Shown: piece after piece, positions 609-50,400 of the stretch
Layout: every line of letters starts with the position of its first letter
How positions within the stretch are numbered: the stretch's first letter is position 1
Source of the DNA: Phoebastria nigripes
Lineage: Eukaryota; Chordata; Aves; Procellariiformes; Diomedeidae
Direction: 5' to 3'
Length of the DNA: 64,000 nucleotides
Assembly: GCA_035582835.1 (NCBI GenBank)
Contig: JAYKAV010000433.1
Location: 790,732-854,731, forward strand
Notes under the pieces: generated by a model
What the model saw: the letters and a program-made list of their open reading frames with translations, nothing else
Database searches by the model: none
What the model was told of the DNA's origin: nothing
Position numbers and translations under genes: made by a program

Positions 609-16273
<15,665 letters not shown>

Positions 16274-16449
16274 GGCTGCCCCGGGCCAGCCCCGGCGCGC
16301 AGGCGCGGCCCTGCCCCGGGGGAGCGCCCCGCCCCGCCGCCCGCCTCTCCGGTGGGGCCCCGGCAAGAGGAGGGAGGCAGAGGTCAGCGGCAGCAGCAGG
16401 CAGCGCTGCCTGGGGAAGTAACAGCGCGTGTCCACGTCCTTCCGGTACA

Positions 16450-16455
16450 TTTAAT
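16450..16455 (-). terminator. KNSTRN: Candidate KNSTRN polyadenylation signal (ATTAAA)
   Basis: ATTAAA on the minus strand about 330 bp after the KNSTRN stop and about 180 bp before the IVD start. No AATAAA was seen in the interval. Confidence 0.4.
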
Positions 16456-24765: not shown

Positions 24766-27700
24766 TCAACTGTTGTAACCAGAACTTTGTGCGCTAGATC
24801 GTTTGATCCAAACATCAGGCATGTCTGGTTGGCTGTTGGGTAACACAACCGGACCTTCGCTCCCTAATCCAAATCGATTTTTCCATGAAGAGCTGTTCTG
24901 CTGCGATGCTGCTGGAGAGAGATCAAAGACAGTCTCCCTCAGGTCCAGCCGCAGGGTATCTCTCTTCCCGTTCAAGTAACCTCTCTCTGTTTGACTATAC
25001 GAATCAGACAGCTCTAAGACATCCGGACAAGAACTGGCTGATTCAGCAAGCTTTAGGCCTTGCTCAAAATCACTAATCGACGTCTCACTGGAGATGTTGA
25101 GCATGTCAAAAGAGCTGCCAAGAGAACAAAGGCATCTGTGAATTTTGTAGATGTCAGCAGCAGGGAGATGGCTGTTGTCTGAGGTATAATCCGACTGCTG
25201 CTTGGCAGTGTCACTAGAGCACTGTGATTTATTGAGCTGCCCTTCTTCTTTCATGCCAGCTGGCTGGATATGGTCCAGCCCAGACCCATCCCAAGCTTTT
25301 GGACCGTACTTTCGACATCGACAATCTCGGCAGAGTCTCTCCCTGTGAATTTCTGCTCCTGAGCTGCTGTGCTTGTATGGAGAGGAAGTTTGCAAGGCAG
25401 GACACTGGCACAGATCAACCTGCTGGTCTCCAAGGGTCTCCTGCAGATTCTCTCTCTCTCTTTCAAGGGAAGGGTGCATTCCTATTCTGGGGCATCTGCT
25501 GTCTTCAACTTGTGTGTCTTCAGAGAGCACTGACGGCCGGTTGGACAGCTTGCTTGTGGAAGTGCTGTTGTCAAAACTGTCGCTGAGTTTTCTGGACAAG
25601 GGCTGGAGCTCATATTGCTCGTTTGCAGTGTTGGACTCCTGGACCTTCCGCAATCGGTTTTGCTTTTCGCTCCCCCCACAGGCAAAGCTTCCGTTCAGCC
25701 CAGAGTCATCAGAATAGTCTTTCATGGTGTGGGCACAAGGCCAAAGGATCTGCCCACAGTTCTTCTCTGGGCCGAAGAAGCAGCACAGTGACTGGAAGAA
25801 GAAGCTGGCAAACCCACAGCTGATACACTTGATCATCATGATGAATATCCCCAACTTCCTATACGCCAGGACCGTCGCAGGCAACATAATGACCCCTGCA
25901 GAGAAGAGAGCAGAAGCTGCCATGGCTGTGGCACAGCTCATCTGCTTCAGGGAAAAGGCCACTCGGCTCAGGCGGTCAGAATGGGGGCACAGATGATAGG
26001 AGATGCAGTAGTTGACGGTAAAGTCAACGGAGAGACCTACTGCAGCTGAAATGAAGAGAGACTCCACTGCGTTGAGCTGCCACTCCAAGAGGACCAAAAG
26101 GCCAACGGTTACCAGGACAGTACCTGCGATGGCAGTAACAGAGAAAATGCTAAGGAGAACGTTCCAGGTAGTGAGCAGCAGCACCACGAAGGAAATGGCT
26201 ATGGAGAGCCCCATGACCACCATCGTTTCTGTGCTGAGACTGTGCTGGAGGTTGTATAGCTCTAGTTTACTGGTAAACCATCCATTCTGAAGCCCCACAG
26301 GGGCAGTTTTCATTTCCTCTGTTACCCAGAGGTTGATTTCCTCGTAGAATTGTTTGGCTTTGCTGTAGTTGAAGCTATAGTGATAAATAGTGTGAAACTG
26401 CAGCACTAAGGCAGCGAGATTTCCCTCCCCGTCAAACCTGAGGCCCAGATCATACGTTTCTGCCTCTTCCCTGCCTTGTTCCAGGAGCATCATTTTGATG
26501 CAGTGTAGGAAGACTTCGCTTCCGTAAGGGAAGGAGAACTGGTTACAGCAAAGGTTGAAGCTGTGGTCTCGCTGGGAGCACTGGCGACTGTCCATCCACC
26601 TGAGGAACTCCTCCATGAAGCACACAGTAGATTTCTGCTCTGTGTCAGGGTAATAGAAAGTTTTGTTCTTCACTTTTTGGCAGAATTCAAGGAGCCACTT
26701 CTGGGCATCAGGGTTTTGGATTGTGAAGGTGACGTCTGTCACTAGGGTGCCATTGCTTTTTGGATTGAAATGGTCCCCATTATCCATGGGCAGAATGCCC
26801 CAGACTATCGTGACAGGCATACGCTGCCCTTCTCCATGCTCCAGCCTCTCAAACATGAACTGGTGGCAGTACTCAGAATCGTACCTCTCAAAGGGGTGGC
26901 TCAGTCTAAACACCTGGAGAGACGACGTCTCGAGAGTCGGGAGTTTGAGTTTGGGGTTGGAACAGGAAATGTAGGCACCTCCTATGGCTAAGGCAGCAAA
27001 CCAGCAGATCCAGATGTACCGAAACTTGATGACCCCACAAGGCAGAAGCTTTTCAAATAGCAGCTTGGAGGTTTCAGACAGCGTGTTCTGGAGACCCCTG
27101 AGAATGTAATGGAGGGAGAGAGCGACTCTCTTATGGCCGGTGTTGTTCCAGTAGTCTTCTGGCTTGTAAATGCAGGTCGTTGCTATGTAGCGCTCATACA
27201 GCACAGCCGAAGAAGGAAGCCAAGTCATCATGAATACCAGATTCACCAGCACGGAGGTGCCCATGTAAATAGCAAAGCAGCGGATGGCTATTATATTGCT
27301 AATGTAGCTGGCATAGAAGGCAGCACCCGTTGTGAAGCAAGATGCCAGCGTGAGATATGCAAAATGGTGCATGGTTTGACTCACCCACTGAGAAAGCCCA
27401 GCGGAAGGGTTCTGGTTCTTGCTGAGGTTCCAGAGGTCGAAGAAGACAAAGGTGTGGTTGGCACAAATGCTGCTGAGAATGACGACTGCTGTCAGGTTTA
27501 CAAAAGGGAAATAGGTGAATCTGAAGGCCACCTTGTACAAGAAGTAGGAGATCATTAAAGAACTGACAACAGCGAGCAGGACCATCAAGGTAATAAAGAC
27601 GGAGCGTAAATAAAAAGAAATGCTTAGAAAAATAGCTAATATTGCCAGGACTGGATACTTAGTATCCAGTAAAAGATAGTGCTGGAATAGTTTCTGTTTA

Positions 27701-28185
27701 AGGCCCAGGTCCATTCCAGTGATAGATGTATAGTTATCAAACAGATCCCAGGATTCAAGATTGTCTAAGTAGATCCCCATCATAGATGCACCTTTCCTTG
27801 TAGGCAAAAACAGCAGGCTGTATTTGAGAGATGGGACTTGGTACTCCATTGTCTGGGGACTAAGAAAGTCTCTGTCGACCAAGAAGTGAAGAAGCTGGTA
27901 AATGGCATTGAAGCGGGTACATTTTTCTGGGACTTTGGCACACTGAGAGTGTTTCTGTCTCACAGTCTCAGGACCTATGCAAGACGGAGTGAGGATGCCT
28001 TTGTGGTAGTCTGGAGCACAGGCACGAAGGAGGGCCAGAGTATGGGAGATGTCTCCTTGGGTTATCTCCAAACACGAAGACCTGTTGTACAGGACAGCAA
28101 TGTAGTTCCCCAGAGACCAGCTTGGGCAGCATTCGTTGGCTTCAGTACGTTGGCAGAGGTCTCTAAAATGAACGTGCGAGCGTAT
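24766..28185 (-). CDS. DISP2: DISP2 exon 8 (large terminal exon)
   Basis: 3420 nt, 1139 residues plus TGA, beginning IRSHVHFRDLCQRTEANECC. Acceptor ATCTGTTTTTCAG is strong. It holds TM2-TM12, the second extracellular domain and the whole cytoplasmic tail, as in mammals. Confidence 0.97.
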   Translation of the reverse strand: MRSHVHFRDLCQRTEANECCPSWSLGNYIAVLYNRSSCLEITQGDISHTLALLRACAPDYHKGILTPSCIGPETVRQKHSQCAKVPEKCTRFNAIYQLLHFLVDRDFLSPQTMEYQVPSLKYSLLFLPTRKGASMMGIYLDNLESWDLFDNYTSITGMDLGLKQKLFQHYLLLDTKYPVLAILAIFLSISFYLRSVFITLMVLLAVVSSLMISYFLYKVAFRFTYFPFVNLTAVVILSSICANHTFVFFDLWNLSKNQNPSAGLSQWVSQTMHHFAYLTLASCFTTGAAFYASYISNIIAIRCFAIYMGTSVLVNLVFMMTWLPSSAVLYERYIATTCIYKPEDYWNNTGHKRVALSLHYILRGLQNTLSETSKLLFEKLLPCGVIKFRYIWICWFAALAIGGAYISCSNPKLKLPTLETSSLQVFRLSHPFERYDSEYCHQFMFERLEHGEGQRMPVTIVWGILPMDNGDHFNPKSNGTLVTDVTFTIQNPDAQKWLLEFCQKVKNKTFYYPDTEQKSTVCFMEEFLRWMDSRQCSQRDHSFNLCCNQFSFPYGSEVFLHCIKMMLLEQGREEAETYDLGLRFDGEGNLAALVLQFHTIYHYSFNYSKAKQFYEEINLWVTEEMKTAPVGLQNGWFTSKLELYNLQHSLSTETMVVMGLSIAISFVVLLLTTWNVLLSIFSVTAIAGTVLVTVGLLVLLEWQLNAVESLFISAAVGLSVDFTVNYCISYHLCPHSDRLSRVAFSLKQMSCATAMAASALFSAGVIMLPATVLAYRKLGIFIMMIKCISCGFASFFFQSLCCFFGPEKNCGQILWPCAHTMKDYSDDSGLNGSFACGGSEKQNRLRKVQESNTANEQYELQPLSRKLSDSFDNSTSTSKLSNRPSVLSEDTQVEDSRCPRIGMHPSLERERENLQETLGDQQVDLCQCPALQTSSPYKHSSSGAEIHRERLCRDCRCRKYGPKAWDGSGLDHIQPAGMKEEGQLNKSQCSSDTAKQQSDYTSDNSHLPAADIYKIHRCLCSLGSSFDMLNISSETSISDFEQGLKLAESASSCPDVLELSDSYSQTERGYLNGKRDTLRLDLRETVFDLSPAASQQNSSSWKNRFGLGSEGPVVLPNSQPDMPDVWIKRSSAQSSGYNS

Positions 28186-31100
28186 CTGAAAAACAGATGA
28201 GGGAGCATCATGTCAGACCCTTTCTGCACACTTCATCTTGCAGCCCCATAGTGTTCCTCACTCCTTGCAATAATCCTCCCCTCCAGGTGTACCAGCCATG
28301 GCTTGCCATCCTCCCAATGACAAATTGCAAATACTAAAGCTATTGAAACATGCTAGCCTTTTGCAAAAATTAAACCCTGTCCATTATTTGTATTTTATAA
28401 CCTCTGATTTGAAAATTTGGATCCTATGGCAAAGACAGCTAATCCAATTAAACTTCCCACTTGCAAAATTTGCTGTCACAGTCTCCGAGATGATAGCTCC
28501 ATTTCGGTAATTAGGTTCTGCTGCCCAAAATTCTCAGCAGCTTCTGATGGACACCTTTGGCTCCTGGACCAAGGTCTTGTTCAGTGTCCATTTATTCTTG
28601 TTTAATGGCAGCTGCCTCTTTGCAGCTGGACTTCAGTGACAGGTGGAATCATCCGTGTATTGCTAAGTAGGTAAAATGCTTTGGAGTCCTGTAGGCTGAA
28701 ACCTGTTCTGTAGCTTACGTTATTTTTGTCTGGCTTCCTTTCAGCTAGAGATTAAAGATTACAGCAGTCAGAAAAGAGGCAGTGTGTATATATGTTCTTC
28801 CTGACATTACTAACCTTGTCTTGTTCAATTTGACACATGGACTGAATAGCTTGCAAGTTCCATAAGCTCCCAGCAGTTGTGGACATAAATACCAGCTGGG
28901 AATAGCTCTTTTCTGAAATAAAGAAGAAGAAAAAAAAATTTTAAAAAGGATTAGGTAATGAAGATGAATCAGCCAGGCTGTTTGGAGTAGACCCTCGGTG
29001 CATAGAAAAAAAACCCCATATATATCGCTGTCTATATGACTGCTATGGAGGACACCCTGAAGGGAAGCAGGTCACAAAGATAGTAGCTTGTAGTGAGTGG
29101 TAGCATCTGCCTGGTGTGATCTGACCTCTGCTCCTCGCCCATCTGTCAGCAGCAGGAGAGCAGCGTTGGGGCATTTTCAAAATACACTTTCCGTGCTGTC
29201 AGCATGCTTTTAGTGAGCGTTGGCATCTGGTTCTGCACCCCTGTTACAAAGTGAGGGGCTCAAGTTCAGCCAGAAACTCCCAAGGACCTGACAGTTTGGT
29301 GTTTGACTGGCTTCAGAGGTGGAGTAGAGGCAGGGAAGGGAGTAAAAATATCTGCATGCTGTTCCTCTTTCTTCTACTTAACTAGTGTCCATTTTGGGAC
29401 AAATTTTGGGTGTCTTGGAGTTTTCCTCTTTTTTCTCTCCAGTTTTTACTTCCACTTACATTTTTCAAGAAGAAAAGAAGGAACAGAGAGGGAGTGGGAA
29501 CAGAGAGGGAGTGGGGCGTACGCCATTTTTTCAGAGTATTCGCTTTTGATATGGGTAAATGGTGAAAACATTTGTCCTCTTACTGGTGCTTGTAAGGCGT
29601 ATTTATAAAAGGGAGAAAGAAATATGGCAAAAAGTTAAGGAGAAACAGCTCTTCTCCAGAATTTCAGAACAAGCTTTTCCTAACCACTCAGTTATGAAGT
29701 GCTGGAAGATCACTATCCAAAAGGTGGCTTAGGTTTCACAGGGTGGTGTTGTACACACAGCTTTCTTAGGGCACTTTCAGAACATTTCCCTGTGTTCTAA
29801 ACCACTTTGACAATTCTGTATGCGGTTGAGTTCTGGGTGTGTAATACTTACTACCCCATCAAGATTTACTTACCTGGGGGACCACAAAAGAAACCATCTG
29901 CTCCATAGATTTGTTCCACCATTCTCCGTGTCCTCGCTTCTTGTTCTCCCTGAGCAGCCTTCTGTCCTCTGCTAATGCCAATGTCATCATAGCTAGCAAG
30001 AGATCAGATTATTTGTATAACTGGAGATCATCTGGCTATGAGTTATGTTCACTGACAAGGCTCTGGTGCCACACATAACACTGCTGCAGCAATAAGAGTC
30101 GTCATAGTCTTCAAAGAGCATTGCTTGAATGGGAGCTTTTTGATATTGGGTTGACTGTGCCCCTTTATAGGGAACTGCATGAGACTAAGTGAGAAACTGC
30201 ATCCCCTTGTGCAGACATGCTGAGTCGCCTCTGCAGTCTCTTAAAAGAAAACAGTGAAGTAAACGCATGGAGAGTTTAGAGCCTAATTCCTGGTTTCCAG
30301 AATAGGGAGCCCAAGTCCACTGCAGGCAAACAGACTAAACTCTCCAGTGCCTTGGTCGCTTTTAAGCATAGCATATATGTTGTGATTCACATAGATATCT
30401 TGGAACATTGAATCTATAACTTCACAGCCAACATCTTCCTCAAACCCCCCAAACCAAACTCAAATACCTTTTCTTCTCGGCATAGGGAGAAAGGGAAAAG
30501 GTCTTCTTGTAGCCTGTATGGCTCTCTACATTCCTCCACACAACGAGCTTTCTGCCAATGTCAGTATCTCGTGGCTCGAAACCCTGCAGCCAAGCAAAAG
30601 GGTTTTGTCATCAGCTTGCGTTTTAGTTTAGCTTAGCTTTCCTTAATTCTCCTCCTAGACACAGAAACTATATGAGATTATTACTGCATCTTGGAGAGAT
30701 ACACAAATTGAATTTTCCCTGAAAACGCTGCATCCCAGAGCTGACCAAAAGAAATATTTCTCCTTTCCTTTCCTTTTTAGGCAAGGATGGCTACAATCCT
30801 CTCTCCCTGATCTCATAAGACTCTTCTGCTCCTCTTCAAGTAAAATAGTCACTTACAGAAATGGGAGTAACTTTCCTCTTCCTGGACAAACTCTATTCTT
30901 ATTTTCTCAGGATTCTTCCATTAACGAGAGACAGGGATGACTTTAGAAAATGTGGGATCCTGCATGGAAAACAGGACCCTGTGCAGCAGTGCTCAGAACA
31001 GGGCAGTCTCTCCATTTCAAGAGCCTCACACACAGGCTGTAGGAGCCGAAGCCAGATCCTCCATCCAATCTCCACCCAGCCTAGCTAGTCCTTTTGGGCA

Positions 31101-42400: not shown

Positions 42401-44629
42401 GAGAAAAAAGAGCTTCTTTGCTTGTGTTTTCTAAGGAGGTAAGAGTGCCCTTTTCCAGAGATTAGGGAAGGGTTCATTGCGTTTCACTCTCACCTCGTTT
42501 TCTAGCTCCCCTGTCTAGCTGACAGGGAAAGACAGGCACCTCCTGAGCATTTCATCTCCTCCTTAGGCTGGGTCAAATTCTCCTGCACTGAAGAATTTCT
42601 GTGTAGTTGCTATTTGTTTTGCTTTTTACGCTTAGTGCGTATTCTTGAGAAGTTCTACAATCTTTTTCTTAATGAGACTCCTGGGTATGTTAAATCATCA
42701 TGAAAAATTAATGAGACTGCAAAACTCTGCTTCCCACATAGTCTGCCAAGAAAAGTTTAGTTTTATAATCCTTTCCATTGACTCGTCTGAACAGCCTTAC
42801 CTTTACCCCAGGCAGCTACTGCTGCTGTGGGTACAGGTATGTGTGATGGGATACAACCAGACACAAAGGGCTCAAGATCCCCACCCAGTCTTCAGTGCCA
42901 GAATAGGACTGGATGCAGTTTGCTCTATCTGCACTGGCAGTGTAAAATGTGCTGGTAAAATCATGTTTGCTAAGCCTTGTTTTGAAGAAAAAAGAAACAA
43001 AATGAAATGAAAAGAAAAGGGAAAGGAAAAGAAAACACCACCTTGCTATCCCAGCCTGGAAGAGGCCAGAAGAAGGTAGTGTTTTCAAACATCTGTATTT
43101 TTCTGATGATGAGTTGAGCATTGATGATAAGAGCATTGGCTAGGAGCAGAGGATGGGGACTACAGAGCTAACCCTTTAGCGGCTATATGAAGAGCCTTGC
43201 ATAAAGAAGCATTTATGTATATGCATGCTTAGGAGTGAGAGCGCTATCTTCTTGTACTTTATTGCCATAAATTTTAGTTCCTGAGTGAGCAGCATGAGTG
43301 AAATTCAAAATACACCTGTTTCAGATGTCTTAACTCATCTGTATAACTTAAGTCTTACAGGCTGCAGCGTTCATTTCAAAAGACCTGTTGGAATGAGCAA
43401 GGATTACTCAGGCAAGCAAAGCTAACAGGGCTTCAGTGATAGCTCTGACCCCATCGAATGCCCAAGATTTAAAACAGTGCTGGGTTGTGTAACAGTCACT
43501 CAGCGAGCACCGAGACCCAAAAGCACACCAGCCTCTGGCTGAGATCTTCAGAGCTGTCTAAAGAGAGGTGACTGCCCGGTTGGTTCCCCCAGGCAGGTGG
43601 GGATGTCTCAGCACGAATATCCTGTATCAGACAGAAGTGAAACTCTTTGGCTTTCAGAAGGAATTTGTGTGCTGTTGACCTCGGGGTGTGCTCTGGTCAA
43701 ACAGAATCTGAAGAGCTCAGAAGATCCGTTGCCTCTGGTCTAACAAATGGCAATGTGCTTGCAAATTTGGGGATGGCTCCTTGCCCATGATTATGGGCTT
43801 GTTGACGTTTCCAGAAAATGACAATGACTGTGGCTGGTTTAAGACACCAGGTAAGGNAGCATATGGCACAGGGGGGAGAAGATGATGGCTGCAGGGTTTT
43901 GTAGAAGAGATCTTTGGAGTGAAAACCGTGCTTGCCCATAGCCTGGCGCAATGAGGACTCTGTCTGAAACATGCTGAGCTTCACCAACAATAGCTCACCC
44001 GTTGCTGCAGAAGGGAGAGCTCACCATGTTGCAGGATAAAAACCTGCCAGGGAGGCCAAGCCAGGCAGTCACCCACCGACACGGTTGGCTCCGCAGGGTG
44101 TGCCTGACCCCATGCAGGAACAACCAGGGCACCGGCCGGGCAGCACGGATCGCCCAACCCCAAAACCGAGGGGTGGGCAGTTCGGCAGGCAGACAGAGAG
44201 GGGCTTTGCCTGCTCTCTCGGTGGGAGGACGGGACACACCTCCGGGGGGCCGTGCCCAGCTCCGCACCCCCAGCCCCAGGAAAACCCCGGCGGCACCGGC
44301 CACCTCCGCACCCACAGAGCCGGGGGTGGCGGCAGGGCGGGAGCTCCCACCCGCCGGGGCACCGGCTCCGCAGCGCCGGCTCGGCCCCGCCGCACCGGGC
44401 ACAGCCCGGCCCCGCCGTCTGCCCCGCCGCACCGGGCACAGCGGCACTGCCGGCTGCCCCGCCCGCGAGGGAAGGGAAGCCCCCGCGCCCCCGCCACCGG
44501 CCCCGGCCTCCCGTCCCCCGCAGCGCCGCGCCGGGACCCGCGCTCCTACCTGGGCGAGGCGGTGCCGCGGCCGCGGCGCGTCCCCTCGGGCCGCTGCTCC
44601 CGGCGCGGCGAGCCCGGCGCGGCCTCCAT
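24766..44629 (-). CDS. DISP2: Dispatched RND transporter family member 2
   Basis: Polytopic membrane protein of the Dispatched/Patched RND family. DISP1 releases lipid-modified Hedgehog; the role of DISP2 is less clear. Coding exons: 44629-44550, 36693-36247, 33820-33791, 31680-31557, 30583-30468, 29992-29874, 28912-28815, 28185-24766. All GT-AG, all in phase, giving 1477 residues against about 1400 in human. Layout: disordered N-terminus (1-190); TM1 at about 194-217; first extracellular domain; sterol-sensing-domain-like TM block (about 515-672); TM7 at about 730-744; second extracellular domain; second TM block (about 993-1141) with VGLSVDFTVNY; cytoplasmic tail ending NSQPDMPDVWIKRSSAQSSG followed by YNS. 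Conserved tail blocks LNGKRDTL and VVLPNSQPD match human DISP2 rather than DISP1. The TM4 motif is CANHTF instead of the acidic pair found in DISP1. The start is the only good ATG in the CpG-island first exon. Confidence 0.96.
28186..28814 (-). other. DISP2: DISP2 intron 7
   Basis: 629 bp of unique sequence, nothing else recognised. Confidence 0.8.
28815..28912 (-). CDS. DISP2: DISP2 exon 7
   Basis: 98 nt, completing Glu then KSYSQLVFMSTTAGSLWNLQ and AIQSMCQIEQDK. Acceptor CTTTATTTCAG, donor AAG|GTTAGT. Confidence 0.95.
28913..29873 (-). other. DISP2: DISP2 intron 6
   Basis: 961 bp. Contains a short tandem duplication of GGAACAGAGAGGGAGTG around 29482-29516; otherwise unique. Confidence 0.8.
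29874..29992 (-). CDS. DISP2: DISP2 exon 6
   Basis: 119 nt, YDDIGISRGQKAAQGEQEAR through ADGFFCGPP. The FFCGPPEKSY junction matches human. Acceptor CTTGCTAG, donor CAG|GTAAGT. Confidence 0.94.
29993..30467 (-). other. DISP2: DISP2 intron 5
   Basis: 475 bp of unique sequence, nothing else recognised. Confidence 0.8.
30468..30583 (-). CDS. DISP2: DISP2 exon 5
   Basis: 116 nt, GFEPRDTDIGRKLVVWRNVE onwards, a block strongly conserved across Dispatched proteins. Acceptor TGGCTGCAG, donor AAG|GTATTT. Confidence 0.96.
31185..31442 (-). other. Exon-like open frame in DISP2 intron 4
   Basis: 86 codons including a stop, starting directly after a strong acceptor (CTTCCTTCTCTGCAG), in the phase left by DISP2 exon 4. 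The reading begins IEAARQDSKLRRTLKPLEKM. No family recognised, and no AATAAA close downstream. It could be an alternative last exon or a chance frame. Confidence 0.25.
31557..31680 (-). CDS. DISP2: DISP2 exon 4 (first membrane segment)
   Basis: 124 nt, YSQMIAEWPIAVLVLCSVTA then VVCTLAGLLVGNLPDFSEPL and M. TM1 of the protein. Acceptor GATTCCAG, donor ATG|GTAAGT, phase 0 out. Confidence 0.96.
31681..33790 (-). other. DISP2: DISP2 intron 3
   Basis: 2.1 kb of unique sequence apart from the TA/CA microsatellite near 33458-33522 and A-rich tracts near 33225. Confidence 0.8.
33458..33522. repeat. Compound (TA)n(CA)n ... (TA)n microsatellite
   Basis: TA repeats, then about ten CA repeats, a GAGAGAGGATTATTTT spacer, then more TA repeats. 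Confidence 0.95.
33791..33820 (-). CDS. DISP2: DISP2 exon 3 (micro-exon)
   Basis: 30 nt encoding HDKAFRMPK between split codons. Acceptor CTGTCTGCAG, donor AAAAG|GTATGT. Needed to keep phase, and matches the human motif preceding SYSQLIAEWP. Confidence 0.93.
33821..36246 (-). other. DISP2: DISP2 intron 2
   Basis: 2.4 kb of unique sequence. Several short open frames on both strands show no family resemblance. Confidence 0.75.
36247..36693 (-). CDS. DISP2: DISP2 exon 2
   Basis: 447 nt encoding a disordered N-terminal region: EKQNAGPCQTCLAMPEIGNT, later QDLQQHHLYYPC, GERPMLCSHLSSGD and PMQHHIVTVR, with counterparts in human DISP2. Acceptor TTCTCTCTCAG; donor TCAG|GTAAGA. N near 36555 leaves one residue undetermined. 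Confidence 0.93.
36694..44549 (-). other. DISP2: DISP2 intron 1
   Basis: 7.9 kb, the largest intron. No recognised transposon or exon. A 201-codon plus-strand frame at 40026-40631 contains an N codon and resembles no known family. GC content rises toward exon 1 from about 44100. Confidence 0.7.
44550..44629 (-). CDS. DISP2: DISP2 exon 1 (start codon)
   Basis: 80 nt, MEAAPGSPRREQRPEGTRRG then RGTASP plus two bases, donor CCAG|GTAGGA. The EQRPEG string also occurs in the human N-terminus, and the phase matches exon 2 exactly. It lies in a CpG island with a (GCC)n leader. Confidence 0.85.
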
Positions 44630-44779: not shown

Positions 44780-45516
44780 AGCCGCGGGGCGGGCGCGGGG
44801 GCGCTGCCGCCTGCCCCGGGGAGCGCGGCGGGCACTGCGAGGCGGGCGGGTGAGCACCGAGCCGGGGCCGCCCGGCTCCTCCCTCCGCCCCCGGGGCCAG
44901 CCCGGCTCTTCGGGACGGGGTTGAGCGAGCAGGGTCCAGGGCAGGAGCTCCGGGGCGCGTGGCGGTGCAAGGAAGCAGGGTCTTCTCCAAGCCTGGAGAT
45001 GGACCAAACTGCCTCGCCTAGCCCCAAAATCCCCTTCCCGTCCTCACCCCGAGCAGCGCACAGTTCCTGACGAAAGACGTCTTGTGGGGCTGCAGGTTCA
45101 AACAGTGCACAGATCCCTTTGGGTGGCAGGTAGAGTTGTGCTTCTGCTTTGGCCCAAGGTGGGAAAGCTCCCAGAAGCACTCCCAGACCTGCGTGGCAGG
45201 TGCAGAGCAGCATTTTGAAGTGTGTGGGTTCACCCTCTGGATTTTAGCAGCATTCAATAAGTAAACAATTTGTTGAAATAGGTGGTAGTTTTGAAACAAC
45301 TGGGTTGAAAGCACGGAGAACACAAGGAGGTCAGACACGTTCCCCTCCTTGCAGGATCCTGCTATCATTGACTATTGATACCATGAAATTGCACAGAGTT
45401 GTGTGGTAGCCACGCATGTCCCCTTGTGCCATGGGGAGAGCGTCCCATGGAGCTTGTGGAAGGTGGCTGCTCTTTCTGCAACCTCTCCCATGCCAATGAC
45501 CGTGACATTACTTGCG

Positions 45517-45711
45517 CTAGGAAGGGCCTGGGCCTTTCTCATGACCGTGTGTATGGCCATGGGAGTGGCAGTGACCTTCTCCCTTCTTATCATCCGGTGT
45601 GTGGGCATGGTGATGGCTGTGACCTTCTCCTTTCTCATAGCCATGCCTGTGGTTCTCACTGTGGCAGTGACCTTCTTTCTCATGAGGGTGGCATCCTTTT
45701 TGCTTCACATG
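45517..45711 (-). CDS. PHGR1: PHGR1-like histidine-rich small protein, 3' coding exon
   Basis: Terminal exon of 64 codons plus TAG after a strong acceptor (TTCAGCTTTTCTGTAG). The reading starts HVKQKGCHPHEKEGHCHSEN and ends GHTHGHEKGPGPS. Composition: 18 His, 11 Gly, 7 Lys, 7 Glu, 3 Cys in 64 residues. It consists of three imperfect 15-17 residue repeats of the form EKGEGHCHSH.H.H. Mammalian PHGR1 is a short His/Gly/Pro-rich gut epithelial protein next to and upstream of DISP2 on the same strand; this exon has exactly that place and orientation. The avian version has Lys/Glu where mammals have Pro. The symbol rests on synteny and composition. There is no ATG in this exon's frame, so a 5' exon is required. 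No AATAAA was seen downstream. The clustered His and Cys suggest metal binding, which is inference. Confidence 0.6.
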   Translation of the reverse strand, partial: HVKQKGCHPHEKEGHCHSENHRHGYEKGEGHSHHHAHTPDDKKGEGHCHSHGHTHGHEKGPGPS

Positions 45712-47427
45712 CTACAGAAAAGCTGAAGCAAGAAGGGAGAGTGTTAGACCGGAGAGTATCCTATAACCCCCACTAATCCTCTAGCTGCTTAGAATAAGCC
45801 CTCCCTGCCTTAATGACTTAAACGCCTGAGACAGTTTAAAGAACAAAAAGCTTTTCCTAATGCCAGGGTGGGTGACTCTCTCCGACTGTAGGCTGACGCC
45901 TCTCCAAACCCACCAGGAGGGAATTTCCAAGGACAGGCTGCAGGCAGCGCCGGTGTGCCAGCGCGATGATCCCTGCTGGGCTGGGCTGTAGGGTGCTGCC
46001 CGCACCCAGGGGATCCCAGCGTGATGATCCCTGCTGGGCCAGGCTGTAGGGTGCTGCCTGCACCCAGGGGACCAGCCTGCTTTTCTGAGCCTTAGCCACA
46101 GAAATGTTGCTTGCCTGGTAGGATCAGATATGCTGCAAGGAGCAGCTACAGAGTAGCTTGTATTATGTGGCCCAGCAGGAAAGACTGAAACCTGGTATCT
46201 GCTGAAAAGATTGGCTGGCATTAATGTGATGACAAGGACATGGGTGCTATTTCCTTTTCTTTCTTACCGATGCTAAATAATAATACTTGCAACAGTAATG
46301 ATAATAGTAAAGCCATGGGAGCTGAAAGGATGGTGGGAATAGGCTGAATTGCAAACATCCCACTGCTTCTGACAGACAGCCGCATCTTACAGCTTTTAGT
46401 TTGGCTCAGCCCGATGTGTGAACTCCTTGTCTGTGAAGTGGGGGTGATCACACTTCCTCACTCCCACAGCTTGGCAGGTTTCCTCTGTGGCCTGCAAAGT
46501 ATTCGACACGTGGATTAATTTTTTTTTAATTGCCCTTATCCAGGGCCTACAGCAGGGCTCATGCTCCCAGCTAGCAGCAAAGCACTGCGTGAGGCAGACA
46601 GTGGGGCTGCCCGTGTCCCTCTTGGGGCTGTTGTTACACGGCCGGGGCTGGAGCGGTTGGTCGGTACTCTTCGGCAGCGCGGGAGCTGGCTCTTTGCCAT
46701 GGCAATCCACATCCGAGACCTGCGAGCATCAGNTGGGTCCAGCTGGTCCCCGGTGTCCCTCTGACATGAAGGAGGGGGAGCGAGAGGGACAGAGAGAGAG
46801 ATGACAAAAAAAAAGTAGAAGCAAAGAGAAAAATAGCAAAAAATGGAGGTGTAGGGTCAGGAATATTAAAAAAGCCGACAGTAATGGATACATGTGGAAA
46901 AGAGAAAAAAGCTGGTGAGCAGAGAAAGGGGGAGAGGGGGAAAGGAGAGGGAAAATGTATGAACAGGTGAATGGACAAAGATGCACTGGGGGTGATGTAA
47001 GAGGTGGCTGGGGGTGAGGCAGGTTTATGAAGCTGCTATGCTGCAAAAAACTCTCTGTCATCTGAGACAGCAATTTTCTGCTGCTGACCCTGAGAAACTT
47101 AGGGGATCCCTCAACTACTCCTCATTTCATGAAAAGTATCCAAGAGCAGAAAGCCTGCTGGCTCAGGGCTTGAGCTCCCCAAGCAGGGCTCGAAACCTCT
47201 GCTAGTAAAAGGCTTAGGTATTCACACATGGAAAAAAAGGTTAGAAAGCACTGCTCCCGGGAGAGCCAGGGCAAACATCTCCTCTCCACCTCATACCCGT
47301 TGTCTCCACAGGAGGCAGGGTGAGGTAGGAAGGCTGCCAAGGGGACTGCGTAACAGAGCCCCGGGAGGAGAGTTGGGTATTTTTGACACTAATTGGTATT
47401 TGTGGCAATTGAAGACAGATTTCTTAC
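45712..47427 (-). other. Putative PHGR1-like intron
   Basis: Holds a 58-bp tandem duplication (45958-46073) and purine-rich sequence near 46765-46960. No exon recognised with confidence. Confidence 0.4.
45958..46073. repeat. 58-bp tandem duplication
   Basis: Two copies of a unit starting CCAGCG and containing GATGATCCCTGCTGGGC and GCTGTAGGGTGCTGCC, with four to five differences between copies. Confidence 0.9.
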
Positions 47428-47445
47428 CTCTTCTGCTTGACCCAT
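47428..47445 (-). CDS. PHGR1: Candidate 5' coding exon of the PHGR1-like gene
   Basis: ATG GGT CAA GCA GAA GAG then donor GTAAGA, phase 0, which joins in frame to the histidine-rich exon (MGQAEE-HVKQKG). A six-codon first coding exon would fit the short start of mammalian PHGR1. The start context is weak at -3 and the 5' UTR boundary is unresolved. Confidence 0.35.
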
Positions 47446-50400
47446 GAAAGAGATAAGAGAAAAAAACTTCACATTTGAGCTTTGATACATTTTTTACTTG
47501 AATCATCTCTTTTGTTCCTTTTGTATAGCTTATTACTTTGCCTAGCCCTTCTGCTCACCATCCACTTGAATTTCTTTCACAAACAAAAAGCAAAACATTG
47601 TCTCTGCAGCTCTCCTCTGTCTTGAGAGAAGTCTGAGTCAGAAGCGAACACTACACTTCACTTGCTGTGTGTGTGCAAAGTCCCCCCAGTTTGGAGGTTC
47701 CTCCCTCTCCCACCAAAGTCAGTAACAAGGCTCCCTTTATCTTTAGGAGTACAAGCCAAGCTTTAGGAGTACAAGCCAGGCACATCCTTAGAGAATTCTA
47801 AGGAGGCAGAATAAGGCTTTAACTTGATGGGCTGGCAGACTTGACCACGAGCATTTCCCAATGGATTTGCTTTGCACTGCAGTCACAGTTCAGCATGGCT
47901 CATTTCACAGTGCCCTATCTTAGCATGATTACTTTCAGCGCAGTTCATTTTCCTTCACTGTAAATCAACATTTCCCCAAGCAGAATTTAGCTCGATTCAC
48001 GATGTCCTGGCCTCCGTTAGCAGAGCTCAGCATTTCACACACCAGTCGTGGCTGGCTCAGCGAAGCCCACGCAGCACCCAGGCAGGGCAGGGNGCTGGAG
48101 CGTGGCGATCCCGGGCTCGCACTGTTTTGCAGTCTCTTGGCTGATTGCTAACATTTGCCATCAGCTATTTTGGCTTGGATCACTTCGGTTCACCTCCACT
48201 GACGCTATCACAAGACAATCCCCCCTGTGCTCTGCCCTTTCTGCTTTTGCTCCTGTTTTTCTTCAGATCGTCAGGAACAGGCAGCGACACGTCCACGCAT
48301 ATCACGGGATATCAGCTCCTGATAGCCCACTTTTGCTACTTATGCAGTGCTAGCATCGCCCTCTGAGATAATTGTATCTGTAGGACTGATATCGTGGGTC
48401 CCTGAGCTTCCCGAATCCCTCTTGCTACACTGCAGCAAATATATTCATTTAATATAAGGCCTTGACCTCTTTTTAGCAAGGTGGACCTACCACCTACTGT
48501 TGAGTCTTGGGCATTGGTTTTGGCATCTCTTTCTCCCTCTTGCTGCCCCAGGAGATGTTTTGGGGTTTCACCCCTTTGGAAGTGCAGGCCAGGCTATTTT
48601 GTGGTTCTAAACTATGTAACTACTTGTTAAAGAAACTACACTGGCTGGCATCCCTGGGATGGCACAGTGAGCAAAGATGATACCTGCCCCTGGGGCTACA
48701 TGTGCTCTTCTTCCCATGGCTGCCAGTCATTTTTAGTCCCTATCTGACATTTGGCTCCCTCAGAGTAGGAGAGAAATTAAAATTCAGTGTCAGCAGCAGC
48801 CTGCAAAAGAAAGCCAAGTCTTGGGCAAAACCTGAGAGCATCTCAGTAACAGCCAAAGGACCCCTTACCTGAATCCGTAATGGGTTGTTCAATACAGGAG
48901 GTGACCAATGAAGAGAAATAAGAATAGGGCAAAGGGAATAAAAAATGAAGCTGCTTTTATTGCACTTTCTCAGCCCCTATGTGTGCATGTGACTAACACC
49001 AAATGCTCTATGCCAAGGCAGGTCCTGTATGCAAAGAGGCTCCCGTTCACAAAAACATCATCGAGCTGTGCACGAGCACGTGGCTGGACTTTAAAACCAG
49101 AGAGAGCTGTGATGGTCATCTTGCTCCTCTACAACACAGACCATCATATTTCCGTCAGTCGCTATGTCGGCAAACCTGGGAGCTGCTGCACTGGAGACAG
49201 ACATGGGTGCTGCCCAGCTCCGAGTGGAGCATCTCCCATCACCCATCAGTTGCATGAGCTGCAAGACAGGCAAAAGCTCTGCTGCTCAGCAAGTGGTGCT
49301 CTCCTGGCACCCAATCCACTTAGGGCCCTGGGGCTTTAAAATAGCCATTTCAGTGGTTTGATGGATACCCCCAGTACCTGGAGCAGGAAAATGAGATGGA
49401 AATATTACCTGCACACTGGTACTTCTTCCAGTTAGGGCAAATCATCAGGGTTTCGCTTCCTTGATTGAAGCAATTCACAGCAAGCAGCACAAGTGTGTAC
49501 ACACCACATGGTTATCCCCCAGCTGAGGCATTTCCACCAGCTGGTGCAGCCATGTTGCACAGTAATGCTCCAAAACAAGCCCCTGCCTTTCTGGCCAGAC
49601 ACCCGCGTTCTGCTGCTTCCCCGCTCTGCTGTGTGTGTCTGGCTTTGCAAGCAGCCAGCGCCAGCACAGAGAAAGAAACAGCAAGTCCTGCAGTCCTTCT
49701 GGCAACTGATACGAACAGACTGCTGCAAATACGGCTACGTTCATGCCACGCCATCCACATCCAAGGAGGGGGCTGGCATGGAGCAGGAGCTCCTCCTAGA
49801 CCTTTGCCTGGACCTGCTGCTTGGGCTCGCACCCACCTGCAGTCAGTGCTGGGAGGGAGTGGCTGTGGTGGCCGAACTCCTGGAAGCCAGGAGTCCCTTT
49901 CCTCAAAATCTGCTTGGCTCTTGCCCCTGCACTGCAGCAGTGGAGGAACTGCCTATGCCCATCAGCACACACCATTGGCCAGAAGCTGCTGTTGTCCCCA
50001 GTGCCTGTTGCCATTTAGAATATTGCCACTCTGTGGCCTCTCTCTGGCCAGTTTGAGACTGGTAGAGCAGATCTCAGTGCCATTCTAGGGGAGGCATGTG
50101 CTGATCCCAGGATTTCATCCCCTTACAGAAAAAACCCAAGAGTGAGCAGGAAGGATGAGCAAATGGGGCTCCCAAACTCTTTTAGGAACATAAATGATGC
50201 CCACAAGACAATTTCTCCAAGCTGAGACCATCCTTCTTGCCTACACAACATTCATCCAGAGGAATGTTTTCTTCCACAGTGCCTGGTGAACCATGATGGG
50301 TGAGTTAGCAGGATGGAGGCAGAGTGGTCTGGATCAGTCTCTTTGGATGAGGATGCATCCCTGCCTCTCTTGCTGTAGGCAGTGCTACCCTCGGTCTCAG

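What the first reader, a model, noticed from the sequence alone, without database searches (positions are those of the whole stretch)
45517..45711. Candidate avian PHGR1: histidine-rich exon with Lys/Glu repeats in place of mammalian Pro-rich repeats
A short minus-strand exon with a strong acceptor encodes 64 residues, 18 of them His, as three repeats of EKGEGHCHSH-type units. It sits immediately upstream of DISP2 on the same strand, the exact position and orientation of PHGR1 in human. Low-complexity proteins like this are easily missed by homology annotation. If real, the family keeps His/Gly richness while the spacer residues have changed completely, which suggests selection on metal or pH-dependent behaviour rather than on exact sequence.
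Basis: partly seen in the sequence, partly recalled or inferred. Interest (0 to 1): 0.75.

Follow-up and report, generated by a model that had tools for sequence, protein, structure and literature searches.

The report
Histidine-rich reading frame upstream of DISP2
A bird genome carries a short histidine-rich reading frame where mammals keep the gut gene PHGR1, but it has no start codon of its own and is frame-shifted in the one relative found, so it may be a bird version of that gene, its remains, or a coincidence.

Summary
The open stretch is real: 64 codons, 18 His, three 48-nt units, on the DISP2 strand and 888 nt before the DISP2 ATG. No other site in the 94 kb scanned is comparably His-rich. 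It exceeds shuffled sequence (maximum 10 of 60), but a minisatellite elsewhere on the contig also reaches 18 of 60.

Against a simple exon: a TAG directly precedes the frame and there is no in-frame ATG. The better acceptor, 11 nt upstream, keeps that TAG in the exon, so a weaker AG and a separate start exon are needed. None of 14 polyadenylation hexamers occurs before DISP2. The one relative found (predicted protein P0122, organism not given) keeps repeats 1-2 (32 of 39 residues), but repeat 3 lies in another frame there, which counts against the reading.

For it: CDX2- and HNF4-like sites precede the best donor of the interval. P0122 has fewer detectable changes in the frame than after its stop (ratio 0.45, p 0.036), though the contrast does not follow the stop codon closely.

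Similarity to PHGR1 is not significant (279 of 2000 shuffles). I favour a PHGR1-position gene, translated or decaying, over chance, with modest confidence.

The parts
45517..45711 (-). His-rich open frame, 64 codons plus TAG stop, no ATG
45533..45676 (-). three direct 48-nt units (16 codons each); two are 73-75% identical to the reference copy
   Evidence: no tandem array reported by TRF at 45300-45900 even at score 30
45712..45731 (-). acceptor that fits the frame (TAG|CATG), score 5.28, top 2% of AGs on this strand
   Evidence: recalled matrix
45723..45742 (-). better acceptor (CAG|CTTTTC), score 7.15, top 0.8%; its use leaves an in-frame TAG before the His frame
47428..47445 (-). best candidate start exon: ATG GGT CAA GCA GAA GAG | GTAAGA, phase 0 (a further in-frame ATG lies at 47490)
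   Evidence: from the rank I estimate that about one donor this good is expected by chance in this interval
48869..48930 (-). possible non-coding first exon ending in the best donor of 45.2-49.6 kb (CAG|GTAAGG, top 0.2% of GTs); its 5' end is a guess
48956..48963 (-). CDX2-like site GCAATAAA (10 such matches in 64 kb, both strands)
   Evidence: motif recalled
49085..49092 (-). HNF4-like core AAAGTCCA (3 matches in 64 kb, both strands; 22 matches to CAAAGTCCA with up to one mismatch)
   Evidence: motif recalled
24766..28212 (-). large exon of DISP2, the neighbour that defines the locus
44627..44629 (-). DISP2 start codon (MEAAPGS..., compare MEAAPAS... in Anas acuta)

Best explanation
The stretch is the last coding exon of a small gene standing where PHGR1 stands in mammals. 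Transcription would start near 48.9 kb from a CDX2/HNF4-type promoter. A short upstream exon supplies the ATG (best candidate 47445-47428), and the second AG at 45712-45713 is used as acceptor. The product is a disordered peptide of about 70 residues whose GHCHSH-type units hold transition metal ions or protons in mature gut epithelium. Shown here: the open frame, its repeats, its place, and a detectable relative. Inferred: promoter, splicing, start codon, translation, tissue and metal binding.
For: Densest His stretch by far (13 in 40 codons, next 7) in the 94 kb from the window's start to beyond the CCDC9-type domain; same strand as DISP2, 888 nt from its ATG. His density is above all 60 shuffles, and TRF does not see the array, so it is not a young minisatellite. 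The strongest donor in 45.2-49.6 kb lies about 90-220 bp downstream of a CDX2-like and an HNF4-like site. Relative P0122 keeps 10 of 11 His in the 39 comparable codons, against 22 of 28 other residues. It shows 10 detectable changes in 59 codons inside the frame against 23 in 61 after the stop (ratio 0.45, two-sided p 0.036).
Against: No in-frame ATG, and a TAG right before the frame; the better AG excludes the frame. No acceptor scoring 3.5 or more between 47445 and 47797 for the candidate start exon. None of 14 polyadenylation hexamers between the stop and 44651. No strict TATAWAWR or HNF1 site in 44.6-49.6 kb. Repeat 3 is in another frame in P0122. Among the three units, only 8 of 19 variable columns are third positions (p 0.28). 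Repeats 1-2 alone against the flank: 8 in 39 against 23 in 61, p 0.14; against the 18 codons just after the stop (4 changes): ratio 0.92; the sharper break lies further out (14 in 77 against 19 in 43, p 0.011) and so does not mark the frame's end. No protein of 35-112 aa shares three 5-residue words, though I do not know how common words are treated there.
Confidence: 0.33

Rival explanations
1. Relic: the locus descends from a PHGR1-position gene, but in birds the frame is decaying. The window copy has no start and the relative has lost the register of repeat 3, so no protein is made.
For: No ATG, TAG at the frame's edge, weaker fitting acceptor; shifted frame in P0122; none of 14 polyadenylation hexamers; place and His content still fit.
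Against: The 64-codon frame is free of stops in the window, and changes in P0122 are fewer inside the frame than after it (p 0.036). The P0122 shift is read from a protein prediction alone and could be an assembly fault.
Confidence: 0.27
2. Coincidence: an old, diverged 48-nt tandem repeat upstream of the DISP2 promoter that happens to be open and His-rich in one frame and was never a gene.
For: Another 18-of-60 His window occurs in 294 kb of the same genome. Two further frames over the same repeats are also open: the +1 frame and an antisense frame of 129 codons. The codon-position test is null and similarity to PHGR1 is not significant.
Against: The other example is a TRF-visible minisatellite, this one is not. 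From that single base-rate case, a hit within 5 kb of the expected place on the right strand would be about a 1% event (my rough estimate). Some conservation in P0122.
Confidence: 0.3
3. A different, unrelated bird gene: a small secreted His-rich peptide, histatin-like in composition. The in-frame ATG at 47490 gives MYQSSNVKFFSLISFMGQAEE before the exon, with a short hydrophobic run.
For: Open frame from 47490 to the donor at 47428 in phase 0.
Against: The hydrophobic run is very short, no signal peptide was tested, nothing supports the exon beyond its donor, and the histatin resemblance is recalled and compositional only.
Confidence: 0.1

Closest known systems
PHGR1 (proline-, histidine-, glycine-rich 1) of mammals
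   Same: Small His-rich repeat protein; place and strand beside DISP2 (the human position is recalled, not looked up); three cysteines.
   Different: Human PHGR1 is 29% Pro, 18% His, 31% Gly with a single Lys and repeats of about 11 aa (PMC5803922). Here it is 6% Pro, 28% His, 17% Gly, 11% Lys, 11% Glu, with 16-codon units and no start codon in the exon.
Histatins of primates (recalled)
   Same: Short, His-rich with Lys and Glu, HEK and HGY words.
   Different: Secreted salivary peptides of another locus; no signal peptide shown here; no homology tested.
His-rich minisatellite reading frames, e.g. L026 on the same contig
   Same: 18 His per 60 codons, open by repetition.
   Different: L026 has an 18/36-nt array recognised by TRF; the window array is not recognised.

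Membership tests
PHGR1 | Between DISP2 and CCDC9B, on the DISP2 strand | tested here: met
   DISP2; PF15266 match on the + strand at G000:C425:882580, about window 91849. That this is CCDC9B is inferred; the mammalian gene order is recalled.
PHGR1 | High proline and glycine (29% and 31% in human) | tested here: not met
   6% and 17%; human values from PMC5803922
PHGR1 | High histidine (18% in human) | tested here: met
   28%
PHGR1 | Single lysine near the N-terminus and three conserved cysteines | tested here: inconclusive
   Three Cys but seven Lys; human features from PMC5803922
PHGR1 | Repeats of about 11 residues | tested here: not met
   48-nt units, 16 codons
PHGR1 | Sequence similarity beyond composition | tested here: not met
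   279 of 2000 shuffles reach the score against a recalled, incomplete human sequence of 71 aa; searched against the own genome, that sequence gave 3 matches at E <= 10, none in the window, best E 1.16
PHGR1 | Complete coding frame with start codon | tested here: inconclusive
   None in the exon; only an upstream candidate without further support
PHGR1 | Expression in mature gut epithelium | not testable with these tools
   No RNA data; only CDX2/HNF4-like motifs

The most novel reading that the evidence does not exclude
Birds keep an unannotated PHGR1 counterpart in which the Pro/Gly spacers have been replaced by Lys/Glu while the His/Cys pattern stays, so that what is conserved in this gut protein is its His chemistry and not its sequence.
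Probability: 0.2. Interest if true: 0.65.

Novelty: new variant of a known kind. Interest (0 to 1): 0.36.

Why it matters
PHGR1 is a gut-epithelium gene whose function is not established; the one paper on it that I read (PMC5803922) deals with mammals. A non-mammalian counterpart with other spacer residues would show which property is kept and would give a comparative handle on function. If it is a relic, it would date the loss of a gut gene in birds. If it is a coincidence, it warns that open, His-rich frames arise from old tandem repeats.

Tried and rejected
Homologue search with the 64-residue frame: no candidate sharing three words. By the tool's stated length limit (35-112 aa) the 125-residue relative was not a candidate there, so this silence is weak. 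The mixed profile A1 found only P0122 among 789 candidates and listed no mammalian PHGR1, so it does not test that family. The frame matched no Pfam family at E <= 1 and no PDB sequence at E <= 10; the window matched no Rfam family at gathering score and no tRNA. Phage records, prokaryote genomes and viral contigs gave no relative. Selection test from the repeats themselves: null. Other frames over the same DNA: +1 and antisense frames are open as well and have no better support. A better PHGR1 candidate nearby: none seen in 94 kb. Literature: PHGR1 with chicken gave 2 papers whose listings do not concern a bird PHGR1; PHGR1 alone gave 77 papers, of which 40 were listed, none listed as on birds. 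Searches did not require the word PHGR1 and none of the papers that they listed (10 and 8) contained it; (His-rich, zinc, enterocyte) listed 5 papers and gave nothing that I used. So absence from print is not shown. Of papers I opened PMC5803922 only: outline with abstract, found passages, sections 22, 12 and 30.

Full report
What is there. On the minus strand, 45711 to 45517 reads HVKQKGCHPHEKEGHCHSENHRHGYEKGEGHSHHHAHTPDDKKGEGHCHSHGHTHGHEKGPGPS and a stop: 18 His in 64 codons, three Cys, seven Lys, seven Glu. Three 48-nt direct copies lie at 45533-45676, two of them 73-75% identical to the reference copy; Tandem Repeats Finder reports no array there even at score 30. Both the frame as protein and the surrounding 901 bases find one place only in the 1.2-Gb genome (that search scores only its best candidates).

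Is it more than chance? In 60 dinucleotide shuffles of the window, the most His in an open 60-codon stretch was 10, against 18 here. A fairer control is real DNA of the same genome. In 294 kb (the window, 30 kb beside it, 200 kb elsewhere on the same contig), one other open stretch also reaches 18 of 60 (L026). It lies in a tandem array that TRF recognises. So His density alone is not proof of coding. From that single case I estimate, very roughly, a 1% chance that such a stretch falls within 5 kb of the place where PHGR1 is expected on the right strand.

The neighbourhood. The large exon at 24766-28212 is DISP2: 576 proteins match at E <= 0.001, and the best listed are bird DISP2 proteins. 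Its ATG reads at 44629, with an N-terminus like that of Anas acuta, 888 nt past the last base of the His frame's stop. A CCDC9-family domain lies on the opposite strand about 46 kb further up. That agrees with the mammalian order CCDC9B - PHGR1 - DISP2, which I recall and did not look up. In the 94 kb from the window's start to beyond that domain, the next best place has 7 His in an open 40-codon stretch, against 13 here (which lists one row per neighbourhood; the antisense strand of the same repeats has 9 in 60).

Problems with the exon. The His frame has no ATG. The triplet just before it is TAG. For the frame to be translated, the exon must begin exactly at 45711, using TAG|CATG (score 5.28). 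An AG 11 nt upstream scores better (7.15) and, if used, keeps the TAG in the exon. The scores come from a matrix recalled from textbooks. The only donor of score 6 or more in reach with an ATG in phase is ATGGGTCAAGCAGAAGAG|GTAAGA (47445-47428; a further in-frame ATG at 47490). Only two donors in 45.2-49.6 kb reach 6; from the rank of this one I estimate that about one is expected by chance, so it is a candidate and no more. The nearest upstream acceptor scoring 3.5 or more is at 47797. None of 14 polyadenylation hexamers occurs between the stop and 44651.

A hint of a promoter. The best donor of the interval (48869, CAG|GTAAGG, top 0.2% of GTs on the strand) follows a CDX2-like site (48963, one of 10 in 64 kb) and an HNF4-like core (49092, one of 3 in 64 kb), both on the same strand. 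This is the kind of pair expected of a gut promoter. But the motifs were chosen after looking, their names are recalled, the looser HNF4 motif has 22 matches in 64 kb, and there is no strict TATA or HNF1 site in 44.6-49.6 kb.

The one relative. The third protein search found a single relative, P0122: 125 residues, predicted on a 2,026-base contig, source 'lgn', organism not given. It matches from MKQKGCHPHEKEGHCHSKGHRHGHEEGEGRSHHHSHTQDD, then corresponds to the +1 frame over the window's third repeat (VTATPMAIYTLMRKAQALPS...), and still later to the window's frame 0 beyond its stop. So the third His unit is not read in P0122. The units suggest that the shift arose there by loss of 7 of 14 bases of a short doubled word; this is inferred from protein letters alone. 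If the prediction was made with bacterial start codons, as I assume, the M of P0122 may be the GTG of the window.

Constraint. Counting the fewest base changes that explain the residue differences: 8 in 39 codons for repeats 1-2, 2 in 20 codons for the rest of the window's frame (read in +1), 4 in 18 and 19 in 43 after the stop. Inside against after: ratio 0.45, two-sided p 0.036. Repeats 1-2 alone against after: ratio 0.54, p 0.14. His is kept in 10 of 11 positions, other residues in 22 of 28. Against this reading: the 18 codons just after the stop are as conserved as repeats 1-2 (ratio 0.92), and the sharpest break lies beyond them (14 in 77 against 19 in 43, p 0.011), so the conserved block does not end where the frame ends. 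Between the three units of the window, 8 of 19 variable columns are third positions (p 0.28). Together this is weak evidence of constraint, and it does not single out this frame.

Is it PHGR1? Human PHGR1 is 82 residues with 29% Pro, 18% His, 31% Gly, one lysine, three conserved cysteines and repeats of about 11 residues, expressed in mature gut epithelium (PMC5803922; abstract, passages and sections read). The bird frame shares the His content and, perhaps by accident, three Cys; it does not share Pro, Gly, the single Lys or the repeat length. A local alignment to a recalled human sequence pairs KGEGHCHSHGHTHGH with KGHCHCGGHGHPPGH, but 279 of 2000 shuffles of the bird frame score as well. 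By these tests it cannot be filed as PHGR1; position is the one strong link.

Verdict. I rank: a PHGR1-position gene still used (0.33), chance repeat (0.30), relic of such a gene (0.27), another small gene (0.10). The mechanism of the first, metal or proton holding by GHCHSH units in gut cells, is inference from composition.

Noticed in passing
window 45387-45776 (+): The antisense strand of the same repeats is open for 129 codons stop to stop, and the +1 sense frame is also open for about 100 codons after its first stop: a caution about openness as evidence.
   Followed up: partly
L026, about 9114-9356: Minisatellite (18/36 nt) whose minus strand reads 18 His in 60 codons, on the same contig C425.
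   Followed up: partly
window 45958-46071: Two 58-bp tandem copies, 92% matches, just upstream of the His frame.
   Followed up: no
window 15989-16450 (-): GC-rich stretch reading ...TVNGLSEEQRQ..., which looks like the start of IVD (recalled), in the order expected after DISP2.
   Followed up: no
window 47490-47428 (-): Open stretch MYQSSNVKFFSLISFMGQAEE ending in a good donor, in phase with the His frame.
   Followed up: partly
G000:C425:882580-882747 (+): CCDC9-family domain (PF15266, 93.8 bits), the only match reported in this genome.
   Followed up: no
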